A stretch of DNA of 35,567 bases from positions 1 through 35,567 of the forward strand of contig NZ_JAIXSV010000331.1 of NCBI RefSeq assembly GCF_027484505.1, read 5' to 3'. The position numbers and the translations under genes are program-made. Shown here piece by piece: positions 631-26,128 of the stretch; the stretch's first letter is position 1; each line of letters starts with the position of its first letter. The stretch is from Asticcacaulis sp. (GTDB taxonomy: Bacteria > Pseudomonadota > Alphaproteobacteria > Caulobacterales > Caulobacteraceae). The notes under the pieces are model-generated. The model saw nothing but the letters and a program-made list of their open reading frames with translations, made no database searches and had not been told where the DNA came from.

Positions 631-1027
631 TCACAGAAATCGGCGACTTAATTGGCATTCTATAGCTAGAGGTTTAATGCGCTTTTTCTCAAAAAGTCCG
701 AAAAGTGGGGTACACTGCGAATTCGGGGCTCATGATGAAACCCGCAAAACCTTGCCGCACAAGGACTCGTACCCAGAGCAGATTTTATTTTGGGGGTACG
801 AATGGGGGTATGGAGAATTTATCTGTCGTTTTAATAAATTGAATTCAAATACTTAATTTCACTATTCGAGTCCGTGCTCAGCGTCCGGCGAAGTTGAAAA
901 ACCCTTAAAATATGCTGTGTTATCGGTGTGCTCATCCGAGATGATCCGCTCTTGTCCGCCGTTATTCGGGCCAATTGGGGGTATTTCTAGGGGTACGCGA
1001 TAAACTCCAATTTTGCGATACCCCCAA
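631..1027. other. Gene-free stretch with integrase-type TGGGGGTA repeats
   Basis: No convincing coding frame lies here. The octamer TGGGGGTA occurs directly at 791-798, 803-810 and 976-983, a degenerate AGGGGTA occurs at 989-995, and the inverse complement TACCCCCA is at 1019-1026, two bases before the integrase-like ATG. Such boxes are common upstream of DUF4102-type tyrosine integrases and probably serve as arm-type binding sites near the attachment site. I cannot define the attachment core because no second copy is visible in the window. Confidence 0.55.
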
Positions 1028-1102
1028 ATGGCGCTCACAGACTCCGCGATCCGTTCGGCGAGGCTACGCGCATCTCGACTGGCGCACAGATGCAAGGGGT
1101 AA
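1028..1102 (+). pseudogene. 5' remnant of a DUF4102-type tyrosine integrase
   Basis: The ATG at 1028 begins the residues MALTDSAIRSAR, which match the very characteristic N-terminus of P4-like/DUF4102 (arm-binding domain) integrases. After about 12 codons the similarity ends and the frame stops at 1100-1102. The TACCCCCA box just upstream supports the assignment. The rest of the integrase (normally about 400 residues) is missing. The sequence continues into histidine-kinase coding sequence in another frame, so a deletion or illegitimate recombination appears to have fused the two. The call rests on a short match and would be strengthened by a homology search. Confidence 0.6.
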
Positions 1103-1853
1103 ACTGTGGGTTCATGTCAGCGAGAAACCGCAGATGCTTGAGGAGCAGGGCCTGGTGGAGATCGCCGAGCTTAGCCGCAGCTTCAACCGCATGACTCAGC
1201 GCCTGACCGAGATCGAGGATAATCGCGCGCTGGTTCTGGCGGGGATTTCGCATGATTTGCGCACGCCCCTCGCCAAGCTGCGGCTGACGCTGGATATGGC
1301 CTCCATCGCGGATACGGACCTGCGTCTTACTGCTGAGCGTCAGGTGGAAACTATTGAGTGCATCCTGGCGCAGTTTCTGGTGTTCGCCAGAGGATTTGAA
1401 GCGGAAGCGGTCGAATCTTTATCGCTGAATGCCGTGATAAGTTCGGTGGCTGCCGACTACGCACAGGCAGGCGTGGAGATCAGCCTGCCTGACACTGAAC
1501 AGATACTCACGGGGCGTCGCGAAGCGGTGCGGCGTCTGCTGTGTAATCTCATCGAGAATGCCTTGCGCTATGGACAAGCACCGGTGACGGTCTTTGCCGT
1601 AACCGTCGAAGAGTAGCTTCGCTTTGGGGTGCGCGATCAGGGCGAGGGGATACACCCGAAACAGGCCGAACTGCTGATCAAGCCCTTTGTCAGATGGGAA
1701 GAGGCGCGCCAGCCCGTCGCCGGTCAGGTGCCGGCCGAGGGTGTCGGTCTCGGCCTCGCCATGGCGCGTCAGATTACGCGGTTGCACGACTGGGAGTTGA
1801 CCTTCAAACAAACCAACGGTGGCTTTGAAGTTGCGATTGAAGCGGGGCGCTGA
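1064..1853 (+). pseudogene. EnvZ-like sensor histidine kinase, 5'-truncated and with an in-frame amber stop
   Basis: The frame encodes the end of a HAMP segment (ELSRSFNRMTQRL), a HisKA phospho-acceptor box (ISHDLRTPLAKLRL, His codon 1251-1253), an N-box (NLIENALRYG), a G1 box (DQGEGI) and a G2 box (GVGLGLAMARQI), in the order of an EnvZ-type kinase. The sensor domain and both membrane segments are missing, because the frame joins integrase-derived DNA at about 1064. A TAG at 1614-1616 interrupts the same frame between the N-box and the G1 box; reading continues in frame to TGA at 1851-1853, so this is a point nonsense change and not a frameshift. No partner response regulator is seen. The gene must be non-functional as a membrane sensor. 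Confidence 0.8.
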
Positions 1854-2092
1854 TCAACTGTCGAAAACAGAGGTTAACCGACGTCTATACCAATCGTAAC
1901 AGGCTCTGCGTCCTCGTCTAAAGCCAAATCTCATTTCCGCTTCGGGCGTTGGCAGGTTTTTGTCGGGAATATCCGCCTTTGGGCACTTACACGCCACCGT
2001 CGCAATGGCGTAGACTGATACGGAAATTCGACAACTGCTTAAATCATCGGGGGGAGTGTAGGCGTTTGGTGGAGTTATGTCGCCCAAAAGTC
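1854..2092. other. Gene-free stretch between two pseudogenes
   Basis: No frame on either strand resembles a known protein. It lies between the kinase pseudogene and the dnaE2 remnant and is probably decayed DNA from the same rearrangement. Confidence 0.4.
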
Positions 2093-2434: not shown

Positions 2435-5386
2435 ATGGTGAGGCTGATAAGGCACGCAATTATCGCCCTCTTTTGCCTATGGCCGCCAGTTGCGCTGGCT
2501 CAGGCTGCCTTTTTCGAGTCCTTCACACAGGATCAGGGACTAAATGACGGCGAGGTCAGTGCCCTTGCGCAGGACGGGGACGGCTTTATCTGGATCGGTG
2601 CCGACAGCGGCCTGATCCGCTATGATGGTGTCAGGTTTCAGCACTGGTTTAATCCCGGCTATATTCTGGATATGCAGACCGCGCCGGATGGCTGTGTATT
2701 CTTCAGGACAAGAGCGCTCCTCATCTACCGTATGTGCAGCGGGCAGGCGAAAGCCTTAACCGGGCCTGATGGGGCTTTCCTTTATGCCTCAAGCTTTACT
2801 CTCGACGCAGCGGGCAGGCTGGTCGCTGTCAGAGACGGGAGTATCTGGATTCGGGAAAAGAGTGGCTGGCAGGCGCTGGCGGACGCCTGGCATGGCTCGC
2901 AAAAAGCGCGCCGGGTTTTCGCGCTGAATACCAGCGATGAGCTGGGCGTTATTACCGGCGAAGGGGCTTATCTGATCACCAGAACCGGCGGGCAAAGAGT
3001 GATAGAGGCGCGGCATCTGACTGCCATCATACGCCGTGATGCGCACAGCCTGTTCGTGGCGGGGGTTTCGGCTGACAAAGGCAGCGACGATCTCTGGCTT
3101 ATTGAAAAGGGCAGGGTGCACAACCTCAAACGTCCGGAAGGACGCTTTCTGTCGTGGGTAATGCGCAATGGCACCTTGTGGCTGTCTTCGGATACCTATC
3201 TTTTCTCCGTAAGCGTTGAAAACCGGACGCGGCTGATGCAGCAAAGCGAAGGCATAAACAGCGGCGGTCCCCTTCTGGTGGATCGGGAAAACAGTCTCTG
3301 GCTGGGAACATTCACGCGCCTCTTGCGCTTTCCGGAACCGGAGACCGCCAATTGGCAGGAGCCTCAGGGGCTGAAGGTCAACCATGTCTATCGCCTTTTC
3401 GCCAGCCAGAAGGATGTTTGGGTGACGTCCTGGAAGTATGGTGCCAACCGGTTTTCGCGCATAGAGGGAAGCCTTCGGGCCGAGAGTTTGCCGGGAGCAA
3501 AAGGCGTCGTGTGCAGCGATGGCCGTCTGGTCTGGCATGTGGGCGAAAGCGGACAGCCGGGAGGCCCTTACAGTCAGCCGGTACCGGACGCCGAAATCTG
3601 GGGGTGCTATACCGATGAGAGCGGCGCACAGTGGTTGGCGGCAAGCGAAGGTCTGTTTGTCCGTGAAGGCAACGCCGGCTATCGCCTTGCGCTCGGCGGA
3701 TTTGGCAAAAGGGTGGGGTTTGTGGCCCTGTGGCCTTCGCAGGAAGGCGGCTTCTGGTTGTCAGATGGCTTTACCACCTGCCTGTGGCGTCCGCGGCCGC
3801 GGGTTTATGAGCGGTGTTTTCAGCCGCGCGATTATGAGCGGGTCTTCGACGGCGCAGAACTGCCGGACGGGCGGCTTTGGGTGATCAAGGAATCGGATCG
3901 TCCGGAAAAGGCTCCGTCGGGCCTCTCAGAGGTGGTCAACGGCCAGTGGCGCGATCTGGCGGGCAGTACCTGGACCCCAGGACAGGGGCTGTTGCATATA
4001 CGTCCGAGTCCTAGGGGCGGGTACTGGATTTCCGGCAAGGGGACGCTGCTGCGTATCGCCCCCTGTCGGAATTGCCAGGAAGGGTGGCAGACTCTGGAAG
4101 CCCCGGCCACCGCGCAGGGACTGGCTGGCAACAGCGCCAAGGACGTGATCGAAGTCGCGAGCGGTGATTTATGGATTGCGGGCAATAACGGCGTTTGGCG
4201 CATCCCGGCGGCGGCGCGGTCCGCCCAACCGGTGGTTAAGGGCGTGCGCATCCTTCAGGTGAACATCGACGGGCGCGCCGTGATCGGCAGACAGTTTCAG
4301 ATGAATCCCCGGAATGGGGTGATGGAGATTGTCTTCACGGCCCTGTCTTACAAACAGGCCAATCTTGTCACCTACCGGTATCGGTCCGGGCCGGACCAGC
4401 GCTGGACCGATCTGGGACACCAGACGCGACTCCAATGGACGCGCCCCAGACCGGGAGACTACCGGCTACAGATTTCCGCCGCCCAAGACGGCGTTCAGTG
4501 GACGCCTCCAGCGGAGGTGCAGGTAAAGGTGGTGCCGCCGTGGTTCCAGAGCCTGCCGGCACTGATCTGTTATGCCGGCATCTGCGTGGGGCTTCTATGG
4601 GGGGCCTACTATCTGCGTGTGCGGCATCTGCTGGCGCTTGAACGACAGCGCACCCGCATTGCTATGGATCTCCACGATGAGTTGGGGGCCTCCCTGAGCA
4701 GCATCGCCATGCTGGCCACGGCGGCGCGCTATGGCCGGGAGACGGGCGATACCGACAACCTCACCTCTCAGATCGCCAGTCTGGCGCACCGCAGCGGACT
4801 GAGCCTGCGCAGTCTGGGGCAGACCTTGGCGGTACAGGCGGCGGACGCCGACCGCTTCGCATGGGAGGTCGCCTCGCAGGCGCGCAGTCTGATGCCGACA
4901 CCAACGCCGCGAGTGCATCTTGAACTCGTCACCGATGCGAAGGCCGTCTATTTCTTTGCCCATCTGCGACGTCAGGTTCTCCTGATCCTGATTGAGGCAC
5001 TCACCAACATCAAAAAACACGCTCAGGCTTCTGAAGTGATCATTCGCCTCAGGCCTGAAACGGAAGGGGGGCTGTGGGAACTGTGTGTCGAGGACAATGG
5101 AAAGGGTATGGGTGAGGAAGGACTCGGCTCGGGCATGATGCATATGCAGCGGCGGGCCGAGGCTGTGGGGGCCCGGCTTAATGTAGACAGCTGGTCTCCG
5201 GGCGGAACGCGTATCCGTCTGCTTTTTTCGCCCTCAAGGTTTAAATCGGGGCGTATTCCGCCGCCGTCCATTGCGGGGGGATCAAGTTCTGGCATTCAAT
5301 CTGTATTATCGGGTGTGGGTTTTCTGAAGAAGAGGGCGAATGTGATGCTTAGGCGCGCTACCCGCAGAGAGACGAAGGAGGGGTAG
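2435..5386 (+). CDS. Sensor histidine kinase with periplasmic beta-propeller (two-component regulator propeller type)
   Basis: The 983-residue product begins with a signal peptide (MVRLIRHAIIALFCLWPPVALAQ). A long periplasmic region follows with propeller-type repeats, for example WIGADSGLIRYDG near residue 50, LWLGTFTRLLRF and LWIAGNNGVWRI, and then a Y_Y_Y-like domain at about 620-700. A membrane segment lies near 700-722. The cytoplasmic part has a HisKA_3 box with His747 in MDLHDELGASLSSI, an N-box with Asn858, a G1 box VEDNGKGM and a final GGTRIRL. This is the architecture of NarL-partner kinases that sense a ligand in the periplasm. The last 40 or so residues after the ATPase domain form an unusual basic tail. 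The GTG at 2438 is an alternative start. The response regulator gene follows 2 nt later, so the two form one operon. The ligand is unknown. Confidence 0.92.
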   Translation: MVRLIRHAIIALFCLWPPVALAQAAFFESFTQDQGLNDGEVSALAQDGDGFIWIGADSGLIRYDGVRFQHWFNPGYILDMQTAPDGCVFFRTRALLIYRMCSGQAKALTGPDGAFLYASSFTLDAAGRLVAVRDGSIWIREKSGWQALADAWHGSQKARRVFALNTSDELGVITGEGAYLITRTGGQRVIEARHLTAIIRRDAHSLFVAGVSADKGSDDLWLIEKGRVHNLKRPEGRFLSWVMRNGTLWLSSDTYLFSVSVENRTRLMQQSEGINSGGPLLVDRENSLWLGTFTRLLRFPEPETANWQEPQGLKVNHVYRLFASQKDVWVTSWKYGANRFSRIEGSLRAESLPGAKGVVCSDGRLVWHVGESGQPGGPYSQPVPDAEIWGCYTDESGAQWLAASEGLFVREGNAGYRLALGGFGKRVGFVALWPSQEGGFWLSDGFTTCLWRPRPRVYERCFQPRDYERVFDGAELPDGRLWVIKESDRPEKAPSGLSEVVNGQWRDLAGSTWTPGQGLLHIRPSPRGGYWISGKGTLLRIAPCRNCQEGWQTLEAPATAQGLAGNSAKDVIEVASGDLWIAGNNGVWRIPAAARSAQPVVKGVRILQVNIDGRAVIGRQFQMNPRNGVMEIVFTALSYKQANLVTYRYRSGPDQRWTDLGHQTRLQWTRPRPGDYRLQISAAQDGVQWTPPAEVQVKVVPPWFQSLPALICYAGICVGLLWGAYYLRVRHLLALERQRTRIAMDLHDELGASLSSIAMLATAARYGRETGDTDNLTSQIASLAHRSGLSLRSLGQTLAVQAADADRFAWEVASQARSLMPTPTPRVHLELVTDAKAVYFFAHLRRQVLLILIEALTNIKKHAQASEVIIRLRPETEGGLWELCVEDNGKGMGEEGLGSGMMHMQRRAEAVGARLNVDSWSPGGTRIRLLFSPSRFKSGRIPPPSIAGGSSSGIQSVLSGVGFLKKRANVMLRRATRRETKEG

Positions 5387-5388
5387 GG

Positions 5389-6054
5389 TTGGGACAGGAG
5401 CGTCACCTGATCATCGTGGACGATGACACGGCTTTCCGTGAAAGCCTGCGCACGCTTATGCGGGCCGCTCATCTGTTTGAGCGCATCAGTCTCTTTGCCG
5501 ACGCCGACCAGTTTATGCGCTGGGCGAAGTCGGCACCCGGTGCTGAGACGCTGTGTGATCTCGTCCTGATGGATCTGAACATGCCCCGAATGAACGGGCT
5601 CGAACTCCTGAGGGCGGTCAAGGCGCAGTGGCCGCTGACCTGCGTTTTCATGCTGACCGTCTATGATGAACCCGCTCAGGTTATGGCAGCGGTTAGCGGC
5701 GGAGCCGATGGTTATCTGCTGAAAGGGAGTGACCCGGAGACTTTGCTTCAGGACATCTCTCAGGCGACGCGTCATGGCGCGGGCCTTTCCCCCGGTCTTA
5801 CCCGAACCCTTATTGACGCTGTCCGCCTGCTTTCACCGCAGCCGGTCGCCCACCCGCCGTCCGCGACCCTGAGTGCGCGTCAGGTAGAGATACTCAGGGC
5901 GCTAAGTGAGGGGCAGTCCTATCAGGAGGCCGCGCAGGGGCTGAACATCTCTCTGGATACCGTCCGCTGGCACATCCGCAAAATATACGGAGCGCTTGAG
6001 GTACAATGCGCCGCTCAGGCCGTGGCAAAAGCGCTAACCTTGCGTCTGATCTGA
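5389..6054 (+). CDS. NarL/FixJ-type response regulator (REC plus LuxR HTH)
   Basis: The 221-residue protein has an N-terminal receiver domain with acidic residues D11-D12, phospho-acceptor D62 in LVLMDLNMP, T90 and K112, and a C-terminal LuxR-type helix-turn-helix (LSARQVEILRALSEGQSYQEAAQGLNI, then DTVRWHIRKIYGAL). It starts with TTG at 5389, supported by AAGGAGGGG at 5375-5383 with 5-nt spacing. It follows the propeller kinase by 2 nt and is almost certainly its cognate output regulator. Proteins of this class bind palindromic sites of about 20 bp. The three AACCGCATG-type palindromes downstream are good candidates (see findings). Confidence 0.93.
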   Translation: MGQERHLIIVDDDTAFRESLRTLMRAAHLFERISLFADADQFMRWAKSAPGAETLCDLVLMDLNMPRMNGLELLRAVKAQWPLTCVFMLTVYDEPAQVMAAVSGGADGYLLKGSDPETLLQDISQATRHGAGLSPGLTRTLIDAVRLLSPQPVAHPPSATLSARQVEILRALSEGQSYQEAAQGLNISLDTVRWHIRKIYGALEVQCAAQAVAKALTLRLI

Positions 6055-6107
6055 GGCAGAGACGGGTTGAGACCGCGAGAGGGAATGCAGGCGCGTAAAC
6101 GGGTGGC

Positions 6108-6127
6108 AACCACATGTATATGCGGTT
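6108..6127. promoter_or_regulatory. Palindromic operator candidate, site A
   Basis: AACCACATGTATATGCGGTT, 62 nt upstream of the ATG at 6190. It matches site C at 17 of 20 positions and also matches site B when read on the opposite strand. Probable binding site for the neighbouring LuxR-type response regulator (inference). Confidence 0.6.
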
Positions 6128-6189
6128 CTGGGGGGACGCATATGGTGTAGGGTTGTGCGCAATATCGCTCGCGGAGCCGGTTAAGGCCT

Positions 6190-7023
6190 ATGTTTCCAAG
6201 TATCTCACAGCGTCTCCTGTGTATGATCGGACTATTACTGATGGCGTCGCCGGTCATGGCTGAGCCTGAAAGGCCCGTGCTCATGCCCTATGCCCCCGGG
6301 TACTCCGAACCGGTGGGTGTTAACGCGGAAGGGGCTGAAGGCGAGGTGCATCGCGCCCTTTCACTGGGGCCGGCAAGTCAGCCTGCCCTCTCGGGGTTTG
6401 TGTTCAGGACGCAGACCGGGGCATCGGGATGGTCTCATCTGGCCGTGACTGCGGATTCCTCCGTTGCGAGGCTGAGCCTGCGTCAGGGGGATCAGACTTT
6501 CAGATTTACCGCTCAGGCCCACTGGTGGGCCGGTACATTTGAACGGCGTGTTATCCGGCTTAAGGGCCGGTCGCGGGCGTCAGGGGCCATAGATGTGCCT
6601 GCGGGCTATGTGGCGGTACTTCAGGGGTTTGACATTCGCAGTCCACGGGCCGCCGGGCCTCTGCGGGCATTTTCCCTGACACTTGCCGATGACGGCCGCC
6701 ATGTCGAACTGGTGCTGCGAAACGGGCAGCCCTGGGAGGCCGAGATCAGTTATGTGCTTGTCCCGTCCGAACGCCTCCGCCGTAAGGCAACAGTTGATGG
6801 TACGCCTGCCGGCAGTCTGACCGTGCCGGCACAGCAGATAGGGTCTGTGGAGGCGTCTGAAAAGCGTGTGCTGACGGGTTTTGAATTCCTGCCCAAACGA
6901 CAAGGTGTTGTCACCGCGGCGCTGGGTATTGAACTGCAAAGTGCTGAGCCTCGCGTCGTTCTCGAAGGGCCAGAAGGACCCGCAGCCTTACGCTGGCGTG
7001 TGCACTTTGTGACGGTGGATTAG
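6190..7023 (+). CDS. Secreted protein with three internal repeats, function unknown
   Basis: The 277-residue protein begins with a signal peptide (MFPSISQRLLCMIGLLLMASPVMA). I do not recognise a family. The mature part appears to hold three related units of about 50 residues, at roughly 66-112, 141-192 and 226-277. Each starts with an L-x-GF motif (ALSGFVF, VLQGFDI, VLTGFEF), continues through an alternating hydrophobic strand pattern, and ends near an LRxG or LEGP turn followed by a final strand. This suggests a repeated beta-sandwich. It is located just downstream of the two-component genes, and the palindrome at 6108-6127 lies upstream of it, so it is probably controlled by that system. 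AAGG upstream of 6190 is the likely ribosome-binding site. Confidence 0.8.
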   Translation: MFPSISQRLLCMIGLLLMASPVMAEPERPVLMPYAPGYSEPVGVNAEGAEGEVHRALSLGPASQPALSGFVFRTQTGASGWSHLAVTADSSVARLSLRQGDQTFRFTAQAHWWAGTFERRVIRLKGRSRASGAIDVPAGYVAVLQGFDIRSPRAAGPLRAFSLTLADDGRHVELVLRNGQPWEAEISYVLVPSERLRRKATVDGTPAGSLTVPAQQIGSVEASEKRVLTGFEFLPKRQGVVTAALGIELQSAEPRVVLEGPEGPAALRWRVHFVTVD

Positions 7024-7100
7024 ATCAAGGACTGAGCGCCTCGCCTGGTTCAAACATTTGTTTTTATTTACTTCTAACAAATGCTTTTTGGGAGACTGAG

Positions 7101-7643
7101 ATGAAGCAACAAGCCATTAAGGGGCTGGTCGTTTGTGTGGTTGTGGCGTCGATCGCCGCCTGCGGCAAACCCTCCGAAGGTGAGGCCGGGATCAGTGAGA
7201 AAAAGACGGCTACGGCCGCGAACAGCCAGAGCGCACCGGGGACCGCTGCCGCCGTCAATCCGGGCAGCCTGCTCAAAAGTGGCCTTTGGGCCATCAGCGT
7301 GACAGGGCAGGGACCAATGGGGATGAACGCCAAGGTCTGCATCGGAAAGGACTATGGCAAGGCGTTTTCAGGAGGTTTCACCAGCCATTCAAAAGGCTGC
7401 GACAGCGTGACCGCCCGTCAGGGGGGAGGCTCAATCATCGTGGAGGCCCGTTGTAAGGCCGGGGGCGGACAGATGAACATTCTTCAGACCATCACACCCC
7501 ACGGCGACACCCGATTTACGCAGGTGACTCAGATGCGTTTTGAACCGGCCCGACCCGGTATGCCCGAGATGAAAACGACGGCAGAAGGGGTTTATGATGG
7601 GCCATGCCCTGAGGGCATGAGCGAGGGCACGCTACAGCGTTAG
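7101..7643 (+). CDS. DUF3617-family lipoprotein
   Basis: The 180-residue protein has a lipoprotein signal peptide with lipobox SIAAC (Cys near residue 21), then a low-complexity linker rich in A, S and E. A DUF3617-like domain follows: GLWAISVTG, CIGKDYGKAF, a second Cys in KGCDSV, VEARCKAGGGQMN and a final C in DGPCPEGM. DUF3617 proteins are small periplasmic or lipid-anchored proteins of unknown role that are common in Proteobacteria. The start has GGGAG about 9 nt upstream. An inverted repeat, ATTTGTT with AACAAAT, lies within 7045-7085. A strong terminator follows the gene. Confidence 0.8.
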   Translation: MKQQAIKGLVVCVVVASIAACGKPSEGEAGISEKKTATAANSQSAPGTAAAVNPGSLLKSGLWAISVTGQGPMGMNAKVCIGKDYGKAFSGGFTSHSKGCDSVTARQGGGSIIVEARCKAGGGQMNILQTITPHGDTRFTQVTQMRFEPARPGMPEMKTTAEGVYDGPCPEGMSEGTLQR

Positions 7644-7684
7644 GTGGGCCACGCCGAGAAGGCTACATCGAAGGATACCTCAAG

Positions 7685-7720
7685 AAGCGCCTCCAGGCAT
7701 AGGGCCTGAGGCGCTTCCTT
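7685..7720 (+). terminator. Rho-independent terminator after the DUF3617 gene
   Basis: A 9-bp perfect stem (AAGCGCCTC at 7685-7693 with GAGGCGCTT at 7708-7716), extended inside by AGGC/GCCT across one bulged base, is followed by TTCCTTTT. It lies between converging genes, so it may also limit read-through from the minus strand, although the T-rich tail points to the plus strand. Confidence 0.8.
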
Positions 7721-7745
7721 TTCGTGGTCTCCCCCTCCAAACCGC

Positions 7746-8930
7746 TCAGCGGCACGCAAACGGGTAGGTTTCGCTCTTGCGATCGCCTGTAAAGCGGGTC
7801 AGCGGCGACCCGTTTAAGGTGCATCGGGCCTGATTGACGCCATTGTCGCGAAAGACCATGGTCAAAGTGTCAAGGTTCCAGTTATCACCGCCCATGCCGC
7901 CTCCAAACGAGGTTCTCAGCGTCACAGACTGGATATCCTGCGGCGCAAGGCCCTCAGGCAAACTTACGCCGACGGTCTGATCGGAATGGTCGATCCACCT
8001 CTGCCCCACATTGACGTTAGACGCCTCAATGCGGGTGCCGTTTTTCAGATTCAGACTGACACTCAGATTGTCGTTGCCGCCGCGCAGATCATCTCCACCG
8101 GTTCCGAGGGTCAGGATCAGTTCCTTGGGATGGTCGCTGATGGCAGGGGGCGTCTGAGGCGTCCAGGTATTTTTCATCACAAAATAGGTCCGGAAGCATT
8201 TGGTACCATTGGCGCTGTCCATGCAGTATTTCGCTTCAGATGGAACGGGATAAAGCGCGACCTTCCGATTGCCGGAATTGGGATCATAGATGAATATTTT
8301 CAGGTCTTCCTTGTTGGCCCCAAGGTCGCCGCGATAGCGGCCCATATCGTAGCCGATGGCCAGCACGACATGGTCATTCGAGGGGTCTGCATCCAGCGAT
8401 TTAAGCCCCAGAGGGACCGGGCGTCCGGCGTCTATTTCCGCCCGCAGCTCCTGAAGGCGTCCGCCGCCAGTACCCTGAAGCCCCCAGTTGAAGAACTCAG
8501 CGTTACGGGCGCCCAACGGATTGGCATGCAGTTCGACCCACTTCGGCATGGCTCGTTCAAGCGACGTCATGTGACGGGCATATATGTAGCTCTGCAACTG
8601 CGTCCCGTTGACGGGGGTATAGGTTTGAGCCGGTGCCGCCTGCCCCTTGTTGAAATAATCCAGTGCGGCATAAACCATACCGCCGCACAGACCACCCGTG
8701 GTGATGTCGAAGACGCCTGTGACCGTTTGGAAGGAGTTTCTAAAGTGGAACCCGTTCACTGCGGGATCGAACCGGGTCATCCGCTTCGTATTCGTAAGGC
8801 TTTGCGCAACGTCCGTTGGGACCTTAAGCGGTTTGTTGACGACGGGTGTTTGACCTGTGGCTGCGCCTGCCCCCACCAGCGACAGCAACGCCGCCATTCC
8901 GAAACCGACCCGCCTGAGATAGTGATTCAT
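7746..8930 (-). CDS. Secreted papain-like cysteine-peptidase-like protein with C-terminal beta-sandwich
   Basis: The start is set at the ATG 8930-8928, which has AGGAGGGG four bases upstream and opens a clean signal peptide (MNHYLRRVGFGMAALLSLVG); the open frame extends further but lacks such support. The 394-residue protein carries TGGLCGGMVYAALDYF (Cys82), NDHVVLAIGYD (His187) and FIYDPNSG (Asp216). That is the Cys-His-Asp order and spacing of a papain/C39-like fold. A distinct C-terminal domain (about 270-375, starting LILTLGTGGDDLRGGNDNLS) resembles a PLAT-like beta-sandwich. Proteolytic activity is not proven; related GLCGG proteins are mostly uncharacterised. Palindromic site B is 55 nt upstream. 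Confidence 0.78.
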   Translation of the reverse strand: MNHYLRRVGFGMAALLSLVGAGAATGQTPVVNKPLKVPTDVAQSLTNTKRMTRFDPAVNGFHFRNSFQTVTGVFDITTGGLCGGMVYAALDYFNKGQAAPAQTYTPVNGTQLQSYIYARHMTSLERAMPKWVELHANPLGARNAEFFNWGLQGTGGGRLQELRAEIDAGRPVPLGLKSLDADPSNDHVVLAIGYDMGRYRGDLGANKEDLKIFIYDPNSGNRKVALYPVPSEAKYCMDSANGTKCFRTYFVMKNTWTPQTPPAISDHPKELILTLGTGGDDLRGGNDNLSVSLNLKNGTRIEASNVNVGQRWIDHSDQTVGVSLPEGLAPQDIQSVTLRTSFGGGMGGDNWNLDTLTMVFRDNGVNQARCTLNGSPLTRFTGDRKSETYPFACR

Positions 8931-8985
8931 TGTCCCCTCCTGAATTGAGTTCATGAATGAGTTTAGGGACTTATCTCGCACAGCC

Positions 8986-9005
8986 AACTGCATGAGCATG
9001 TGGTT
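8986..9005. promoter_or_regulatory. Palindromic operator candidate, site B
   Basis: AACTGCATGAGCATGTGGTT on the plus strand; the reverse complement is closer to site A. It lies 55 nt upstream of the start of the cysteine-peptidase-like gene on the minus strand. Same consensus and similar spacing as sites A and C. Confidence 0.6.
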
Positions 9006-9094
9006 CGTGGCCCTTACAGTCATCCGCCACGCAGCCATTCGCTTTGGGTCCGGGTTAGGGTCCAGACTCAATCAGGTTTCGGACGTGACGCGAC

Positions 9095-9180
9095 GTGAAT
9101 TTTGTGTCCGGACAGGAGGCTGGTGCGCCGTGCAGTGACCTCCACAAGCGACAGACGACGTATCCGGGCGCAAAATTCAC
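9095..9180. repeat. Imperfect 17-bp inverted repeat
   Basis: GTGAATTTTGTGTCCGG at 9095-9111 pairs with CCGGGCGCAAAATTCAC at 9164-9180 (15 of 17 positions), separated by 52 bp. It could form a long-range hairpin or mark the ends of a small degenerate mobile unit. Confidence 0.5.
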
Positions 9181-9321
9181 CGCGCCCCGAAGGGGTATGG
9201 CGCAGATCGCCCATTTTGGCGTCGCAAAAGCTTGAAAGGGTATAACCTTCCGGCGCTTTTGCTCCTGAAACTGGACAATCTGCCCTCATATCACGCCGCA
9301 GATCCTGATTGAGTCTGGCCC

Positions 9322-9984
9322 CTAAAGCAGAGGCGTTATTTCAATCGCCGATATAAGGGTCCGCTCATTGTTGGATTTAGTAATAAGACCGTTCACTGAA
9401 ACAGGGGTCATCAGGTTGGAAAGCGTGGTCACGAAGCTTACAATATGATCTGAGCATAAGGCGGGGAACGGCACCGTCGTTTCCCCCAGAAACCCCGAAG
9501 AGTCCCTCGATATCAGAGTGATTTCAGCCGTCGCTGACGCGCCTGCCGCCGTTTTGGGTTCGCTTGACACATGAAGGGTCAGCAAGATGGGTTTCAATGC
9601 CGATGGGGTTATGTTGACGGTGAATGTCTGGTATTTTTCCAAAAGGACGTGTCGGCCACCGATGAAGCTATCGGAGAGGCCCGGATAGTCAAAGCGTTGG
9701 TCATTACTGAGGACGAAGCCCTGCTCGCTTAGGTATCCGTAATACTCAAAATCGACGGCGGGCGACGGGTAGGGGGCCGAAGGGGTGATGATGACGGTCT
9801 GCCCCAGTGTCCGGCTCGTTGTGAACCCAAGTTTGCTTGCCTCTCTTATCTTGTCTGCGGCAGACAAGGGGCGAAAACCCGCACCTGCGCTATTTCCGGC
9901 CGGTGCGGCGGCAAAGGCCTGTGCCGCCATCGCAGGCACGGCCACCATGCCGGTCAGGGCAGTTCGGCGATCAATCAGGGACAT
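9322..9984 (-). CDS. Tat-exported protein of unknown function, paralogue of the upstream gene
   Basis: The ATG at 9984 is chosen because it opens a Tat-like leader (LIDRRTALTGMVAVPAMAAQAFA) and lies 14 nt after the preceding stop. The 220-residue product matches no family I recognise. It shares with the gene at 9998-10612 a PILLTLHV/PILITVYV block, an aromatic-rich central part and the C-terminus ISAIEITPLL/ISAIEITPVL, so the two arose by duplication. They are probably co-transcribed. The alternating hydrophobic pattern suggests a beta-rich fold. Function unknown. Confidence 0.72.
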   Translation of the reverse strand: MSLIDRRTALTGMVAVPAMAAQAFAAAPAGNSAGAGFRPLSAADKIREASKLGFTTSRTLGQTVIITPSAPYPSPAVDFEYYGYLSEQGFVLSNDQRFDYPGLSDSFIGGRHVLLEKYQTFTVNITPSALKPILLTLHVSSEPKTAAGASATAEITLISRDSSGFLGETTVPFPALCSDHIVSFVTTLSNLMTPVSVNGLITKSNNERTLISAIEITPLL

Positions 9985-9997
9985 GGCTGGCTCCGGA

Positions 9998-10612
9998 TCA
10001 AAGGACAGGGGTAATCTCGATGGCCGAGATGCAGAAGAGACCGCGGGCCTTGAGTTTGACCTGAATAGGCTTGGACAGGGTGCGCGGGGTGAGGGCGTGA
10101 TTGAGGATAAGGCCCGTTTCGCTGGCGGCGCAGGGATGCGCCGCATAGGGGGAGTCGGGGCCAGCCAGATCGTCCCCTATATTCAGGATGTTCTGAATAC
10201 CTTGACCGGGGCTAACGCTTTCCGAGTAGGCCACAATGTCGGGCAGGGCATCGACATAGACGGTGATCAGAATGGGACGAATGGCCTTCGGGCGGATGGT
10301 CAGCAAGGTATAGACCTGATCACCCAGGTCTTTCCATCCGGCCAAATAGAAACCGGCCCTGTTCATCTTTCCTGAATGGATCAGCTTTATCGCCGGGTTG
10401 GGCTGAGGGTGAACCGGTGTAATCAGAACCGGGCTCCCCAGCTTAGGGGCGTGGAGTTCGGCTAGGAGTTGCGTCAGCCCCCCGGACTTCTGGGCGGGCG
10501 TCAGGCGCGTGAATCGCGGCGCAGGCGAAAGGGCGGATTTATAAACCGAACCTTTCAACAGCTCACTTGCCTTTACCGAGGGGGTGACTTTGGGTTTTGC
10601 CGGACTTTCCAT
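9998..10612 (-). CDS. Hypothetical protein, paralogue of the Tat-exported neighbour but without a signal peptide
   Basis: This 204-residue protein begins with a hydrophilic, lysine- and proline-rich segment and no recognisable signal peptide. The later part (residues about 85-204) parallels the downstream gene: YTLLTIRPKAIRPILITVYV and the final ISAIEITPVL. AGGGAC upstream of the ATG at 10612 can act as ribosome-binding site. It is the first gene of a two-gene minus-strand unit with a 13-nt gap. Palindromic site C is 57 nt upstream, linking it to the propeller kinase/response-regulator system. If it is cytoplasmic, it differs from its paralogue in location. Function unknown. Confidence 0.72.
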   Translation of the reverse strand: MESPAKPKVTPSVKASELLKGSVYKSALSPAPRFTRLTPAQKSGGLTQLLAELHAPKLGSPVLITPVHPQPNPAIKLIHSGKMNRAGFYLAGWKDLGDQVYTLLTIRPKAIRPILITVYVDALPDIVAYSESVSPGQGIQNILNIGDDLAGPDSPYAAHPCAASETGLILNHALTPRTLSKPIQVKLKARGLFCISAIEITPVL

Positions 10613-10669
10613 AATGTCCCTGCCGATGGATATTTGAGTCCAGAATGAAGTAGCCCCTTAGACATCGGC

Positions 10670-10689
10670 AACCGCATGTTCATGCGGTT
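10670..10689. promoter_or_regulatory. Palindromic operator candidate, site C
   Basis: AACCGCATGTTCATGCGGTT, a perfect 9-bp dyad around TT, 57 nt upstream of the ATG at 10612 (minus strand). It is the most symmetrical of the three copies and defines the consensus. Confidence 0.65.
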
Positions 10690-16087: not shown

Positions 16088-17266
16088 ATGGCGTGGCGAT
16101 ATTCAGCAGCAATGGCAGTGGCCATTTTGGGTGCAATTGGCGCATGGGCCGGGGCTGAACCCGCCCTAAAATCCACGGCCGTGCGCCTCAACCAGCTTCA
16201 GTTTATCGGCACGCATAATTCTTACCATGTGGCGCCTGACGCCGCCCTGTTCCGGCTTATGAACGAAACCGGCTATGCGGAGAGCGCGGAGTGGCCAGCC
16301 AGGCGTCTGGTTCCGGCGCTGGACTACACCCACGCGCCGCTGCAAACCCAGCTTGAGAGAGGGTTGCGGGTCTTCGAGCTGGATGTGCATGATGATCCGC
16401 AAGGCGGGCGTTTTGCCGATCCGGGGTTTCTCAAGGCCCTGTCGCCGGAGGTCGCGGCCACTGTGGCACCGGTCGATCCGGAAGGCGAGCTGCGCAAACC
16501 CGGTCTGAAAGTGTTTCACGCCGCCGATACCGATGTGCGCAGCCGCTGCCTGCGCTTTACGCGCTGTCTGGAAATCATCCGCGACTGGTCGCAGGCGCAT
16601 CCGGGGCATCTGCCCGTCTTCGTGCAGATCGAGGCCAAGGAAGGACGCAAACCGCCGGTGGCCAATGCCTACGTGCCCGCTGGGGCGGCGCCGTTCGGGC
16701 GGGCGGCCTGGGCGCGGCTGCACGCCGAAATCGAGGCGGTCTTCCCCCCGGCGCAGATCGTGCGTCCGGCTGAGGTGCAGGGCGCCTATGCCAGCGTCAA
16801 TGCCGCCGTGCGCGCCGAAGGCTGGCCAGCGCTGGACGCCTTGCGCGGTCGGGTTATTTTTCTGCTGCTCGATGATCCGCAAAAACAGGACGCCTATGCC
16901 GACTTTACCTCCGGCGCGGTGGCCCCGCTTTTGTTCGTGGCACGCACGGCCGATGATCCGCGCACGGCGTGGCTGATCCGACCCAAGCCCAAGGCGCGAC
17001 AGATCGAAGCGCTGGTGAAGCAGGGCTTTCTCGTCTATACGCGCGCCGATGCGGGGGGCGAGGACAGCGATCTCAGCAAGGAAACGCGGCGTCGCGAAGC
17101 CTTCACCAGCGGGGCGCAGCTCATCGCCACCGACTATCCGTGGCCAGACCGGCGCTTTGGGCCCTATGAGGTTCGTTTTCCATCAGGCTATGCGCGCTGC
17201 AATGCGGTCCTGAAAAGCCGCTGTGGCACTGAAAATGTTCAGGAATCGCCAAAAAAACGCGAATAG
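16088..17266 (+). CDS. Exported Ca2+-dependent PI-PLC-like phosphodiesterase
   Basis: The 392-residue protein has a signal peptide (MAWRYSAAMAVAILGAIGAW) and a TIM-barrel phosphodiesterase of the Ca-dependent phosphoinositide phospholipase C family (PF16670-like). Visible active-site blocks are FIGTHNSYH (His43, Asn44), LRVFELDVHDD (Glu97, Asp99), KVFHAADTD (His144) and VFVQIEAKEG (Glu182, Lys184). The family cleaves phosphodiester bonds such as that of phosphatidylinositol; the actual substrate here is not known. The gene converges on the first ROK gene, overlapping its 3' end by 28 bp (17239-17266). A ROK-type operator lies 26 nt upstream of the start, indicating substrate-controlled expression together with the divergent MFS carrier. 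Confidence 0.85.
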   Translation: MAWRYSAAMAVAILGAIGAWAGAEPALKSTAVRLNQLQFIGTHNSYHVAPDAALFRLMNETGYAESAEWPARRLVPALDYTHAPLQTQLERGLRVFELDVHDDPQGGRFADPGFLKALSPEVAATVAPVDPEGELRKPGLKVFHAADTDVRSRCLRFTRCLEIIRDWSQAHPGHLPVFVQIEAKEGRKPPVANAYVPAGAAPFGRAAWARLHAEIEAVFPPAQIVRPAEVQGAYASVNAAVRAEGWPALDALRGRVIFLLLDDPQKQDAYADFTSGAVAPLLFVARTADDPRTAWLIRPKPKARQIEALVKQGFLVYTRADAGGEDSDLSKETRRREAFTSGAQLIATDYPWPDRRFGPYEVRFPSGYARCNAVLKSRCGTENVQESPKKRE

Positions 17267-18351
17267 AAGGGCAGGGCGGCAGCCCCGATCAGGCCCGCCT
17301 GTGACCCAAGGGACGAGGCGATGACGCGCGGTCGCGGCAGCATGACGCCTTCGTTGCAGAACTGCTCATCGTCGATGCGCACCACGATCTCCTGCAGGAT
17401 ATGGTGTGGCAGGCGGCCCCCGATGATCACAGCGCGCGGGTCGATCAGGCGGGCGGTGATCCACAGGCCTTCGCGCAACTGCGCCGCCGCACGATTGATC
17501 CAGGTGCGTAGCGGGGCGCAGGTCTGTGGGCGCAACGCCTCCAGATCGGAAAAGTCCTTCACCGCCACACCCCCGGCGCGCAGGTTTTCGAGCAGGTCCT
17601 GACCCGATGGGCGCGGCCGGTCATTGGCAAATTGCACGCCGATCAGCCCCGCATTGCCGTTGACGCCGCGATAGAGCCGTCCGCCGAGGATCAGTCCACC
17701 GCCGATGCCGTGCCCGATATGGGCGAAGAAGAAATCGTCTATGGTCTGGCCTATACCCATCAGCCGCTCCCCCAAAGCGGCGCTGGCGGCGTCGTTTTCG
17801 ATAAACACGGGGCAGGGCAGGTGGGCCTGAAGCTCGCCCCCGATGTCTTCGCCGCGGAAGCCCGGAAACAGGGCGTGGGCGTTCAGGCTGCGGCGGTCGC
17901 GGATGAAGTCGCCGGGCAGAGCGAAGCCCATGCCGGTGAGGCGGGCGGGGTCTATGTCCTGTTCGGCGCATAGCCGCTCGACATGGGTAAGCGCCAGCCG
18001 CGCCACATCGCCGGGGGTGGCGATATCGGTGCGCACCTGGGTTTCGCCCAGCAGCACCCCGGCCAGATTGATCAGCCCCACCTGCACCAGACCCGTTGAG
18101 AAATAGACCCCGGCGGCGTAGGCGGCATCGGCGCGCACCATCAGCGGTCGTGCCGGTTGCCCCCGCCCGCCGGCGCGCCGCACATCCTCGGTCAGCAGGC
18201 CCTGTTCGGTCAGTTCGCGGGTGATGCGCGTCACCGACATGGTCGAAAGACGGGTGAGCGGCGTGATGTCCACTCGCGCGATCGGCCCCAGCCGCCAGAT
18301 GACGTCGAGCACCTGACGGTCGCTGTCGCTCAATATGTAGGAATCGTCCAT
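17239..18351 (-). CDS. ROK-family transcriptional regulator (ROK1)
   Basis: The 370-residue protein has an N-terminal winged helix-turn-helix (about 10-70: DRQVLDVIWRLGPIARVDIT, then RITRELTEQGLL) and a ROK sugar-kinase-like domain with FIENDAASAALGE and GHGIGGGLILGGRLYRG. The usual CxCGxxGCxE zinc motif and ExGH sugar-binding motif are missing; GNAGLIGVQFAND stands in their place. ROK regulators are usually repressors released by a sugar or sugar derivative. It is divergent from a TonB receptor, and the palindrome 18395-18418 lies between them. Because the same palindrome occurs at 16038-16061, this protein probably controls the MFS and PI-PLC-like genes as well. Confidence 0.9.
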   Translation of the reverse strand: MDDSYILSDSDRQVLDVIWRLGPIARVDITPLTRLSTMSVTRITRELTEQGLLTEDVRRAGGRGQPARPLMVRADAAYAAGVYFSTGLVQVGLINLAGVLLGETQVRTDIATPGDVARLALTHVERLCAEQDIDPARLTGMGFALPGDFIRDRRSLNAHALFPGFRGEDIGGELQAHLPCPVFIENDAASAALGERLMGIGQTIDDFFFAHIGHGIGGGLILGGRLYRGVNGNAGLIGVQFANDRPRPSGQDLLENLRAGGVAVKDFSDLEALRPQTCAPLRTWINRAAAQLREGLWITARLIDPRAVIIGGRLPHHILQEIVVRIDDEQFCNEGVMLPRPRVIASSLGSQAGLIGAAALPFYSRFFGDS

Positions 18352-18394
18352 AGGGCCTGTTTATTCCTAACGGCGTGATTTGCAAAGCGCTCCA

Positions 18395-18418
18395 TTAAAT
18401 ATCATTTAGATATTAAAT
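18395..18418. promoter_or_regulatory. ROK1 operator candidate between ROK1 and TonB receptor 1
   Basis: TTAAATATC, ATTTA, GATATTAAAT. The core ATATC-N5-GATAT is a perfect dyad. It lies 43 nt from the ROK1 start and 67 nt from the receptor start, and matches 16038-16061 at 18 of 19 arm positions. Confidence 0.7.
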
Positions 18419-18485
18419 ATGTCACAAAAGCGTGTTAGTTGAGGCGGGGGCGGCGCTGAGCCGTGAGCATGACAAGGACGGGACA

Positions 18486-21062
18486 ATGGTTAGCAAGGTC
18501 ACAGCCATCGGCGCATCGGCGCTGGCTATCGCGCTTCTGACGACGGGGGCACAGGCGCAGGTTCAGTCCTCGGACACGCAGATTAAGCCGGGCACTGAGG
18601 CGGTCACTGAAGTGGTGGTGCGCGGAACGCGTCTGTCGAACCAGCGCGCCACCGATGCCAAGCGCAAGGCGGCTCAGGTCAGCGACGTGGTCGCTTCGGA
18701 CGATCTTAACAAGCTGCCGGATCAGAATCTGGCCGAAGCGACCAGCCGCGTGGCCGGGGTCTCTACGTTTCAGGACGAAGGCGCCGGCCTCTATATCGGC
18801 GTGCGCGGCCTCAGTCAGGAATTCGTCAATGTGACGCTCGACGGGCAGGAGGCTTCGGTGGCCCCGCGTCCGTTCGACAGCAATCTGCGCGGTGCCAATC
18901 TCGAAGCCATCCCCTCGACCTTTGTGAAGCAGGTCGAGGTCATCAAGTCAGCGACGCCGGACCTTGATGGCGACGCCATTGCCGGGACGGTCAATCTGGT
19001 GACGCGCAGCGCCTTTGATGCGCGCAAGCCGTGGCTGTCGGTCGGGGTGTCTGGCGGTCGCTACGAAGAAAACGTCGCGCCAGACGACATGAAGGGCTCG
19101 GTGAAGGGCAAGCTGTCGGCGGGAACGACCTTTGGCGACGGCAAATATGGTGTGGTCTTCGACGCCAATGGCCGCTCGGTCCATCGTGACAATCTGAAGC
19201 CCGGCGCGTGGTTCGGGCCGGTCGGCGATGGGCGTGCGCTGCCGGAGGAGGTCGGCGGCTATTTCTATCAGCGTCAGGAAGACAGTTCCGGGGCCACCGC
19301 CAAGTTCGAGTTCCGCCCGGTCTCCGCCCTTCAGGTCTACGTCTCGCTGAGCTATTTCGACTCCGACATCGTCATCGACAAGAACAAGCACGCGCTTTAC
19401 GCCGCCGTGTCCAATCTCACGACCGGCACCTTTAGCAAGGCGACGGCGACGGGCCGCACGGACAAGGTGCGCTATGGCGTCGATGGCTCCCTTACCGTGG
19501 CGGGTGGTCTCGACTATGCGCTGACGGGGCGCGACACGCTGAGCCTGAAAGGCTCGTCTTCGTCCAGCACCGCCTATCAGGACGATCCGCGCGTTGATCT
19601 CTACTCTGCCGGGCCGCTGAGCGGCACCTACAGCTCTGACGGCACCACCTACGCCTATCAGTTCGATGCCGCCAGCGCGCCGAAGTTCGTCAATCCGGCC
19701 AACTACGCCTTCAATGGCTATCGTCGCTACAAGGAAGAACTGGCCAAGGACGTCGATACGGTGCGCGCCGACTGGACGCGCCGTCCGGCCGCCGGTCAGG
19801 GTCTGGGGTTCAAGGCCGGACTGAAATGGCGTGAAACCCGCATCGACTATACGGCCAGCAATCTGCGCTGGCGCAACCCGGTCGCTTCGGCCGACTTCCG
19901 CCCGTTTATCAAGGCCACCGACTACCGCTTCCCCGGCACGCCGAACGACAAGGTGGTCTATGCCGATATCGACGCTCTGTCGGCCTATGCCGAAGGGCTG
20001 GGGGCGGCGAGCTTCAGCCGCCGCGAAGGTTATGTTAACGGCATGGACTACCGCGTCAGCGAAGCGGTGACGGCGGGCTACGCCCTGGCCGACTACACGT
20101 CGGCGCGCTGGCGTGTCATTGGCGGTCTACGCTATGAAAAGACGGCGACCGAGGCGCTCAACCGCTTTAACCGCGCCGAAAACGCCGCCTTTGTCACCAC
20201 TCAGGCCGACTATAGCGACCTGCTGCCGTCGGTGGCTGCTACATACTTCATCAGCGATCAGTGGCTTCTGCGTCTGGGGGCCAGCCGCACCATCGGGCGT
20301 CCGGATATCCGTGATCTGGCGCGCGGCGAAACCCCGCCCAATGACAACGGCATCTACAGCCGGGGTAATCCGGACCTCAAGCCGCGCCGTTCGACCAATC
20401 TCGATGCCTCGCTGGAATACTATTTCGACGGCGGGCGCAGCCTGATCTCGGCGGCGGTGTTCCGCAAAGACATTCAGGACGAAATCTTCGACCTGCAAAC
20501 GCCCTACAAATATACCGACGCCACCAACCGCGTCATCGACTCCTACTATGTGCAGCCGGACAATGGCGGCGATGCGCAGATCAGCGGCGTCGAACTCAGC
20601 CTCGTCAAGGATCGCTTAAGCTTCCTGCCGGGACCGCTGGCGGGTCTGGGTTTCAGCGCCAACCTCACCCTCAATGACGGGTCGCTCGACCTGATCGGGG
20701 CCAACCGGCAGGTAGTGCGCTCCGTCGCCCCGGAAGGCCTGTCGAAAAAGCTGGCCAATGCGGCGCTGTTCTACGAGGGCGAACGCCTGTCGGGCCGTAT
20801 CGCCTGGCGCTACGCCAGTGCGCAAACCCAGCAACTCAGCGTCGATGGTTCGGGTGATCTTAAACTGGCCGCCTATGGGCAGACGGATATGCAACTGGGC
20901 TATCACCTGAACCGCCATTTCGACCTGTCGATGGAGGTGTGGAACCTGTTCGAAGACGAACAGCGCTTCACCAATGCCAATGCCGTGAAGGGCGTGCCCA
21001 ACTGGTACGAAGGGCAAAGATATGGTCGCGCCGTTTGGTTTGGCATAAACTACAAATACTGA
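18486..21062 (+). CDS. TonB-dependent outer-membrane receptor 1 (Caulobacter/Xanthomonas type)
   Basis: The ATG at 18486 follows AGGACGGG and opens a signal peptide (MVSKVTAIGASALAIALLTT); an upstream start in the same frame would only add a hydrophilic stretch. The 858-residue protein has a TonB-box-like TEVVVRGTR, a plug domain (KLPDQNLAEATSRVAGVSTF, YIGVRGLSQEFVNVTLDG, DGDAIAGTVNLVTRSAF) and a 22-strand-type barrel ending in the aromatic AVWFGINYKY. It belongs to the TIGR01782-like receptors that often import saccharides or other carbon compounds. It is divergent from ROK1 and followed by a strong terminator, so it is monocistronic. Substrate unknown; context suggests a ligand related to the phosphodiesterases nearby. 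Confidence 0.93.
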   Translation: MVSKVTAIGASALAIALLTTGAQAQVQSSDTQIKPGTEAVTEVVVRGTRLSNQRATDAKRKAAQVSDVVASDDLNKLPDQNLAEATSRVAGVSTFQDEGAGLYIGVRGLSQEFVNVTLDGQEASVAPRPFDSNLRGANLEAIPSTFVKQVEVIKSATPDLDGDAIAGTVNLVTRSAFDARKPWLSVGVSGGRYEENVAPDDMKGSVKGKLSAGTTFGDGKYGVVFDANGRSVHRDNLKPGAWFGPVGDGRALPEEVGGYFYQRQEDSSGATAKFEFRPVSALQVYVSLSYFDSDIVIDKNKHALYAAVSNLTTGTFSKATATGRTDKVRYGVDGSLTVAGGLDYALTGRDTLSLKGSSSSSTAYQDDPRVDLYSAGPLSGTYSSDGTTYAYQFDAASAPKFVNPANYAFNGYRRYKEELAKDVDTVRADWTRRPAAGQGLGFKAGLKWRETRIDYTASNLRWRNPVASADFRPFIKATDYRFPGTPNDKVVYADIDALSAYAEGLGAASFSRREGYVNGMDYRVSEAVTAGYALADYTSARWRVIGGLRYEKTATEALNRFNRAENAAFVTTQADYSDLLPSVAATYFISDQWLLRLGASRTIGRPDIRDLARGETPPNDNGIYSRGNPDLKPRRSTNLDASLEYYFDGGRSLISAAVFRKDIQDEIFDLQTPYKYTDATNRVIDSYYVQPDNGGDAQISGVELSLVKDRLSFLPGPLAGLGFSANLTLNDGSLDLIGANRQVVRSVAPEGLSKKLANAALFYEGERLSGRIAWRYASAQTQQLSVDGSGDLKLAAYGQTDMQLGYHLNRHFDLSMEVWNLFEDEQRFTNANAVKGVPNWYEGQRYGRAVWFGINYKY

Positions 21063-21069
21063 CCTTGTG

Positions 21070-21098
21070 AGGCCGCCGTCCACACCGGCGGCCTTTTT
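21070..21098 (+). terminator. Rho-independent terminator of TonB receptor 1
   Basis: Perfect 9-bp stem AGGCCGCCG (21070-21078) with CGGCGGCCT (21086-21094), a 7-nt loop, and a T-run overlapping the stem end. It starts 8 nt after the stop codon. Confidence 0.92.
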
Positions 21099-21117
21099 CG
21101 TTACCCCTCGATAGGGT

Positions 21118-22233: not shown

Positions 22234-22277
22234 GCGTCTTCGATGCCGTAACCCATTTGCCACGTCAAGGTGATAAA

Positions 22278-22298
22278 TAAGTTAAGTAAGATAACTTA
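22278..22298. promoter_or_regulatory. ROK2 operator candidate
   Basis: TAAGTTA, 7-nt spacer, TAACTTA: a perfect 7-bp dyad in the ROK2/TonB-receptor-2 divergent region. No second copy was noticed elsewhere in the window. Confidence 0.5.
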
Positions 22299-22368
22299 AT
22301 TTTTGTGTCACATAAGCGCGGTATGGGCTGAGCTATGCCGGGCGGTGGGCACCGGGATGGAGGCTATG

Positions 22369-24984: not shown

Positions 24985-24995
24985 TTGGAAATCCC

Positions 24996-25988: not shown

Positions 25989-25990
25989 AG

Positions 25991-26112
25991 CCAACGGCCG
26001 AAGAGGCTGACGGCCTCCGGTCGTTGAAGACACGTGAATTTTCCACATGTATCAGCGACATGGAAAATTCTCGAAAAGGATACCAAGAGTCATTTTCAAT
26101 GACGCTTGGTAT
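25991..26112. repeat. Cluster of three hairpins between converging genes
   Basis: Three consecutive inverted repeats are visible: an imperfect one framed by CAACG and CGTTG (25991-26025), GAATTTTCCA with TGGAAAATTC (26036-26045 and 26061-26070), and ATACCAAG-GTCATT with AATGAC-CTTGGTAT (26080-26112, one mismatch in the stem). None has a long T-run. They may act as a bidirectional terminator or mRNA stabiliser; the last resembles a REP-like element. Confidence 0.55.
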
Positions 26113-26128
26113 GAGGCCCTAAAGAGAT

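What the first reader, a model, noticed from the sequence alone, without database searches (positions are those of the whole stretch)
6108..10689. Three copies of a 20-bp palindrome mark an apparent regulon of the propeller two-component system
The dyad AACCGCATG-NN-CATGCGGTT occurs at 6108-6127, 8986-9005 and 10670-10689. Each copy lies 55-62 nt upstream of a start codon: the three-repeat secreted protein, the cysteine-peptidase-like protein, and the paralogous unknown pair. The constant spacing on both strands and the nearby LuxR-type response regulator (5389-6054) suggest one sensor/regulator pair controlling a set of exported proteins of unknown function. This could be an undescribed secreted system triggered by a periplasmic ligand.
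Basis: partly seen in the sequence, partly recalled or inferred. Interest (0 to 1): 0.85.

Follow-up and report, generated by a model that had tools for sequence, protein, structure and literature searches.

The report
Small local operator set, probable regulon
Three near-identical 20-letter palindromes sit just in front of genes beside a bacterial sensor-regulator pair in an Asticcacaulis genome; they look like binding sites of one regulator, probably the neighbouring one, making a small accessory regulon of an ordinary kind that controls unusual, mostly exported proteins.

Summary
The dyad is at the three stated places, but only 10670-10689 is perfect; 6108-6127 and 8986-9005 each differ at two positions. 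The cluster is far from chance: 0.03 matches expected in the window. In the 4.66 Mb genome only these three, plus one 3-mismatch match inside a coding frame, come within three mismatches. The degenerate motif is absent from the 397 other genomes of the order sample and occurs once, inside a frame, in the 384 others of the class sample. Start-codon distances are 62, 55 and 57 nt. Three of four asymmetric pairs are mismatched in the transcribed strand, so DNA operators fit better than RNA hairpins. Best reading: a three-promoter local regulon of the adjacent NarL-type response regulator, partner of a propeller kinase. That link is inference, and one result speaks against it: the only close relative (Asticcacaulis W46) keeps kinase and regulator under purifying selection, but its assembly shows neither the sites nor any of the four proposed target proteins. 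"Set of exported proteins" is only partly right. Interesting locally, of a known kind.

The parts
2435..5386 (+). Sensor histidine kinase: Reg_prop propeller, Y_Y_Y, HisKA_3, HATPase_c (983 aa)
   Evidence: Pfam above curated cut-offs for all four; PDB sequence relatives include two-component sensors 3v9f, 3ott, 4a2l and DesK-type kinases; dN/dS 0.24 against W46
5389..6054 (+). NarL/FixJ-type response regulator (221 aa, TTG start), proposed binder of the palindromes
   Evidence: Response_reg 81.9 bits and GerE 40.3 bits; best NCBIfam model NarL, 112 bits, below its cut-off of 250; dN/dS 0.09 against W46
6108..6127 (+). Palindrome site 1 (2 mismatches), 53 nt between regulator stop and site, 62 nt before the next ATG
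6190..7023 (+). Target 1: 277-aa protein with signal-peptide-like start, no family match
   Evidence: No Pfam, NCBIfam or PADLOC match; start; found only in the own genome among 249 of the family
8986..9005 (-). Palindrome site 2 (2 mismatches), 55 nt before the ATG at 8930
7746..8930 (-). Target 2: 394-aa cysteine-peptidase-like protein with signal-peptide-like start (frame continues to a TTG at 9071)
   Evidence: Weak Peptidase_C39_2, E 0.038, below cut-off; Cys (GLCGG), His (NH/DHVVL-like) and Asp (YDxN) motifs shared with Haloferax and Microvirga plasmid proteins
10670..10689 (-). Palindrome site 3 (perfect), 57 nt before the ATG at 10612
   Evidence: gene-proximal half kept beside a gene remnant in another Asticcacaulis
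9998..10612 (-). Target 3a: 204-aa protein, no signal-peptide-like start, no family match
   Evidence: 64-aa remnant at 77% identity in G011
9322..9984 (-). Target 3b: 220-aa paralogue with a Tat-like start, probably cotranscribed with 3a (13 nt between 3a stop and this ATG; start chosen by me, the frame opens at an earlier ATG, 10146)
   Evidence: 29% identity over 171 residues to 3a; own genome only among 25 of the genus

Best explanation
The three palindromes are operators, two-fold symmetric DNA sites for a regulator dimer, at three promoters of one small local regulon. The binder is most likely the adjacent LuxR/NarL-type response regulator (5389-6054), phosphorylated by the propeller kinase (2435-5386) when its periplasmic part senses an unknown ligand. 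Bound 55-62 nt in front of the start codons, it would switch on the 277-aa protein, the cysteine-peptidase-like protein and the paralogous pair. Shown: the sites, their rarity and clustering, their promoter-proximal places, the domain make-up of the pair. Inferred: who binds, activation rather than repression, the signal, and the joint task of the targets.
For: Three sites in 4.6 kb and, in the rest of the 4.66 Mb, only one 3-mismatch match, inside a coding frame. The degenerate motif (made from the sites) is absent from the 397 other genomes of the order sample; in the 384 others of the class sample there is one copy, inside a frame. Site 1 lies 53 nt after the regulator's stop codon. The substitutions are transitions that keep the half-site consensus; three of the four asymmetric pairs are A-C mismatches in the transcribed strand, and only site 3 folds well as RNA (-4.2, -2.6, -9.6 kcal/mol). 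The regulator scores best against NarL in NCBIfam, and NarL-type dimers read inverted repeats with a 2-bp centre (PMC9314961 and PMC2718512, passages), the centre spacing seen here. From palindrome to ATG, promoters 2 and 3 are similar (score reached by 0.25% of 2,000 shuffles), as for related promoters. Kinase and regulator are under purifying selection.
Against: No site in front of the kinase-regulator operon. In W46 (G001, a MAG) the pair is kept, but homology ends about 20 nt after the regulator stop, at a dispersed repeat that runs to the contig end; none of the four proposed target proteins is found in its 95% complete assembly, and the only match to the dyad there has 3 mismatches. So conservation of sites with the regulator could not be shown and may have failed. 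Near-matches with 2-3 mismatches are more common in the genus than the reversed control (84 against 32 forward matches in 25 genomes), so the loose pattern alone is weak evidence. No consistent -10 element at a fixed distance, and the sigma-70 scan lists none near the sites. The half-site differs from the NarL heptamer (TACYYMT, recalled).
Confidence: 0.6

Rival explanations
1. The palindromes are operators of another dimeric regulator encoded elsewhere (activator or repressor), and lie beside this two-component pair by chance of gene order.
For: No site before the kinase-regulator operon; W46 keeps the regulator without sites beside it; many regulator families read 18-20 bp dyads (recalled).
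Against: All three sites lie within 4.6 kb beside this regulator, with no comparable copy elsewhere in the genome, as for a local regulator; among the proposed genes of 5389-10612 that were scanned with Pfam, only the 5389 gene has a DNA-binding domain.
Confidence: 0.27
2. The palindromes act as RNA hairpins in 5' leaders (regulatory leader or stability element).
For: Site 3 would fold well (-9.6 kcal/mol); the sites lie 55-62 nt before the ATG, within possible leader range.
Against: Sites 1 and 2 fold weakly in the transcribed strand (-4.2 and -2.6 kcal/mol) and three of the four asymmetric pairs are A-C mismatches; no Rfam match at gathering scores in the window.
Confidence: 0.06
3. The copies are traces of a spread repeat or duplicated promoter, without a present binder.
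For: Promoters 2 and 3 share further similarity downstream of the palindrome; mobile-type repeats occur in this window and genome.
Against: Upstream flanks show no similarity (scores reached by 46-84% of shuffles) and promoter 1 shares only the palindrome; differences keep the symmetric consensus; no other comparable genomic copy.
Confidence: 0.07

Closest known systems
NarX/NarQ-NarL/NarP type two-component systems with 7-2-7 inverted-repeat operators
   Same: HisKA_3-type kinase and GerE-type response regulator; inverted repeat with a 2-bp centre
   Different: Propeller sensor part; 9-nt arms AACCRCATG, not the NarL heptamer (recalled); local, three-promoter set
Propeller (Reg_prop/Y_Y_Y) two-component sensors with solved structures (3v9f, 3ott, 4a2l; Bacteroides hybrid systems, organism recalled)
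   Same: Propeller and Y_Y_Y sensor architecture
   Different: Separate kinase and LuxR-type regulator here, not one hybrid chain (hybrid make-up with AraC-type output recalled); no polysaccharide-utilisation family among the site-led genes
Cysteine-peptidase-like proteins of Haloferax and Microvirga plasmids
   Same: 29% identity over the core with the Cys, His and Asp motifs
   Different: Different further domains and gene neighbourhoods

Membership tests
Reg_prop/Y_Y_Y histidine kinase | Reg_prop, Y_Y_Y, HisKA_3 and HATPase_c domains in one chain | tested here: met
   All four above Pfam cut-offs
NarL/FixJ (LuxR-type) response regulator | Receiver domain plus GerE helix-turn-helix | tested here: met
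   PF00072 and PF00196 above cut-off
NarL proper | Scores above the NCBIfam NarL equivalog cut-off | tested here: not met
   112 bits against a cut-off of 250
Operator of the adjacent response regulator | Two-fold symmetric site repeated at several promoters | tested here: met
Operator of the adjacent response regulator | Conserved with the regulator in relatives | tested here: inconclusive
   One relative only; its contig ends in a repeat soon after the regulator; no comparable site and none of the four proposed target proteins in its 95% complete assembly
Operator of the adjacent response regulator | Bound by the purified regulator | not testable with these tools
   Needs gel shift or footprint
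Peptidase_C39_2 | Above the Pfam cut-off | tested here: not met
   15.0 bits, cut-off 24

The most novel reading that the evidence does not exclude
A self-contained accessory module: propeller sensor, dedicated regulator with its own operator sequence, and a secreted cysteine-peptidase-like protein plus otherwise unknown proteins as its only outputs, an undescribed inducible exported system in Asticcacaulis.
Probability: 0.15. Interest if true: 0.5.

Novelty: new member of a known kind. Interest (0 to 1): 0.33.

Why it matters
If true, it gives a ready operator and three reporters for a propeller sensor whose ligand is unknown, so the ligand could be screened for directly. It would also tie proteins without a Pfam or NCBIfam family (277, 220 and 204 aa) to one signal. 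The regulatory logic itself is ordinary.

Tried and rejected
Phylogenetic footprinting: only one close relative of the regulator was found (97%, W46). The next full-length matches are 33-37% identical (shorter pieces reach 46%). Around three of them (own paralogue on C82, G007, G008) I read the listed frames; their neighbouring kinases show no propeller by eye (not scanned), so I did not use them. Of the 13 stretches, L095 served; the other nine were not analysed.

Search for the regulon beyond the window: none found. The single G409 copy lies inside a 138-aa frame (L109 1501-1520 in 1366-1782); about one chance match per 10^9 bases is my estimate. The 2-3 mismatch matches in other Asticcacaulis genomes (list cut) were not examined one by one.

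Promoter position: a class II (-42-like) placement was considered, but -10 candidates are not consistent.

Single-sequence structure predictions of the 394-aa and 277-aa proteins gave mean pLDDT 42.3 and 44.0: not used. PADLOC found nothing; the PDB sequence match of the 394-aa protein (E 0.95) is not significant. Plasmid searches gave one 5% DNA match and no kinase protein match at E 1e-30.

Literature (listings only, except two papers read in passages): the half-site string gave 93 papers, the 10 listed unrelated by title; Reg_prop with Y_Y_Y, LuxR, response regulator and histidine kinase gave none, propeller with palindrome none, Asticcacaulis with LuxR one, not opened. Absence in print is limited to these searches.
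Full report
What is there. At 2435-5386 lies a 983-aa sensor kinase with Reg_prop, Y_Y_Y, HisKA_3 and HATPase_c, and at 5389-6054 a response regulator with receiver and GerE domains. Three 20-nt dyads follow at 6108-6127, 8986-9005 and 10670-10689. Only the last is perfect; the others carry two substitutions each. The six half-sites fit AACCRCATG with at most one deviation each.

Is it more than chance. In the window 0.03 matches are expected and three are found. A matrix made from the sites scores them at about 29-31 and everything else at 11.5 or less. In the whole genome (4,661,110 bases, 369 contigs) there are the three sites plus one match with three mismatches, which lies inside a 540-aa frame that looks like a cytosine methyltransferase (label by eye). 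The backward-read control gives three matches per strand. Across 25 genomes of the genus, 24 have some match at up to three mismatches; the forward total is 84 against 32 for the control, so loose near-matches exceed the control. The rows seen outside the own genome have 2 or 3 mismatches; the list was cut. The degenerate pattern AACYRCATRNNYATGYRGTT, made from the sites, was found in 1 of 398 genomes of the order (the own one, three copies) and in 2 of 385 of the class (the own one, and one copy in G409 inside a 138-aa frame). The reversed control of that pattern appears in 0 of 398 and 1 of 385. The two samples overlap. A free shuffle test gave 1 of 600, a looser one 11 of 300; both criteria were set after seeing the sites.

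Position. The palindromes end 62, 55 and 57 nt before ATG codons of a 277-aa protein (+), a 394-aa protein (-) and a 204-aa protein (-) followed by its 220-aa paralogue. The 394-aa frame has an earlier TTG at 9071 that would put site 2 inside it; the ATG is preferred for the AGGAGGGG stretch before it and the signal-peptide-like start. Between palindrome and ATG, promoters 2 and 3 are similar (score reached by 0.25% of 2,000 shuffles); promoter 1 is not (13% and 57%), and upstream flanks are not (46-84%).

DNA or RNA. In the transcribed strand, sites 1, 2 and 3 fold at -4.2, -2.6 and -9.6 kcal/mol. Three of the four asymmetric positions are A-C mismatches there, the fourth a G-U pair. That argues for a DNA dyad. 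No Rfam family reaches its gathering score in the window.

Who binds. The adjacent regulator is the natural candidate. Its best NCBIfam model is NarL, below the curated cut-off. NarL-type dimers use inverted repeats with a 2-bp centre, and a single such site 65, 55 or 32 bp upstream of a -10 element suffices for activation at ogt promoters (PMC9314961, passages; also PMC2718512, passages). The dyad here also has a 2-bp centre, but longer and different arms. There is no binding evidence, and the kinase-regulator operon has no copy in front of it.

The result that speaks against. The regulator is found at 97% in W46 only; the next full-length matches among 41 genomes are 33-37% identical, and among the 31 loci of the larger collection again only W46 is close. 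Between the two strains dN/dS is 0.24 for the kinase and 0.09 for the regulator, though 1.7 for the kinase's last 48 residues, so both are kept. In W46 homology ends about 20 nt after the regulator stop, at a dispersed repeat that runs to the contig end. None of the 394-, 204-, 277- and 220-aa proteins was found there; its one match to the dyad has 3 mismatches. Either these genes lie in the unassembled 5%, or W46 lost or never had them, or the regulator has other targets. This keeps confidence at 0.6.

Remnant. G011 holds a 64-aa start of the 204-aa gene (77%). Its upstream stretch aligns up to and including the gene-proximal half-site (CATGCGGTT in gene direction, fully kept), then homology ends inside the dyad. 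It shows that the promoter was once shared, and nothing about binding.

Targets. Signal-peptide-like starts: 277 aa and 394 aa; Tat-like (DRR motif, by eye): 220 aa; none: 204 aa. The 394-aa protein is papain/C39-like by motif: Cys, His and Asp shared with Haloferax and Microvirga proteins, though below the Pfam cut-off. In the family sample (249 genomes) the 277-aa protein is found only in the own genome, the 204-aa one also as the G011 remnant. The 220-aa protein is in 1 of 25 genomes of the genus. The 394-aa protein is in 1 of 385 class genomes and 2 of 25 of the genus, the second only over its C-terminal part (residues 257-389, 31%). The claimed three repeats are not significant (0.14, 0.32, 0.14 of 1,000 shuffles).

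Verdict. A real, small set of operator-like sites of an ordinary kind with unusual outputs: an accessory locus, probably one regulon, probably under the adjacent regulator.

Noticed in passing
window 9055-9325: MITE-like element: 22-nt terminal inverted repeats (95% complementary), about 271 nt in all; 5 copies (own included) in 3 of 25 Asticcacaulis-genus genomes, the other four 82-88% identical to this one. It sits between the cysteine-peptidase-like gene and the paralogous pair.
   Followed up: partly
window 25985-26130; L044 7440-7552: Dispersed repeat of about 125 nt: 36 matches in the own genome, matches in 6 of 25 genomes of the genus (scored candidates capped at 34 a genome), no Rfam family at gathering score in the window. 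One copy follows the regulator directly in W46.
   Followed up: partly
window 975-1855: Sensor-kinase remnant with HisKA (and weak HAMP) in front of the propeller kinase; the W46 counterpart has other stops and lacks a longer stretch.
   Followed up: no
L096 1784-4729 (Haloferax larsenii plasmid): A 981-aa archaeal protein joins repeats resembling H-type lectin (by eye) to the same cysteine-peptidase-like core.
   Followed up: no
window 17250-25990: Two ROK-like repressor frames beside TonB-dependent-receptor-like genes and a glycerophosphodiester-phosphodiesterase-like gene (read by eye, not scanned).
   Followed up: no
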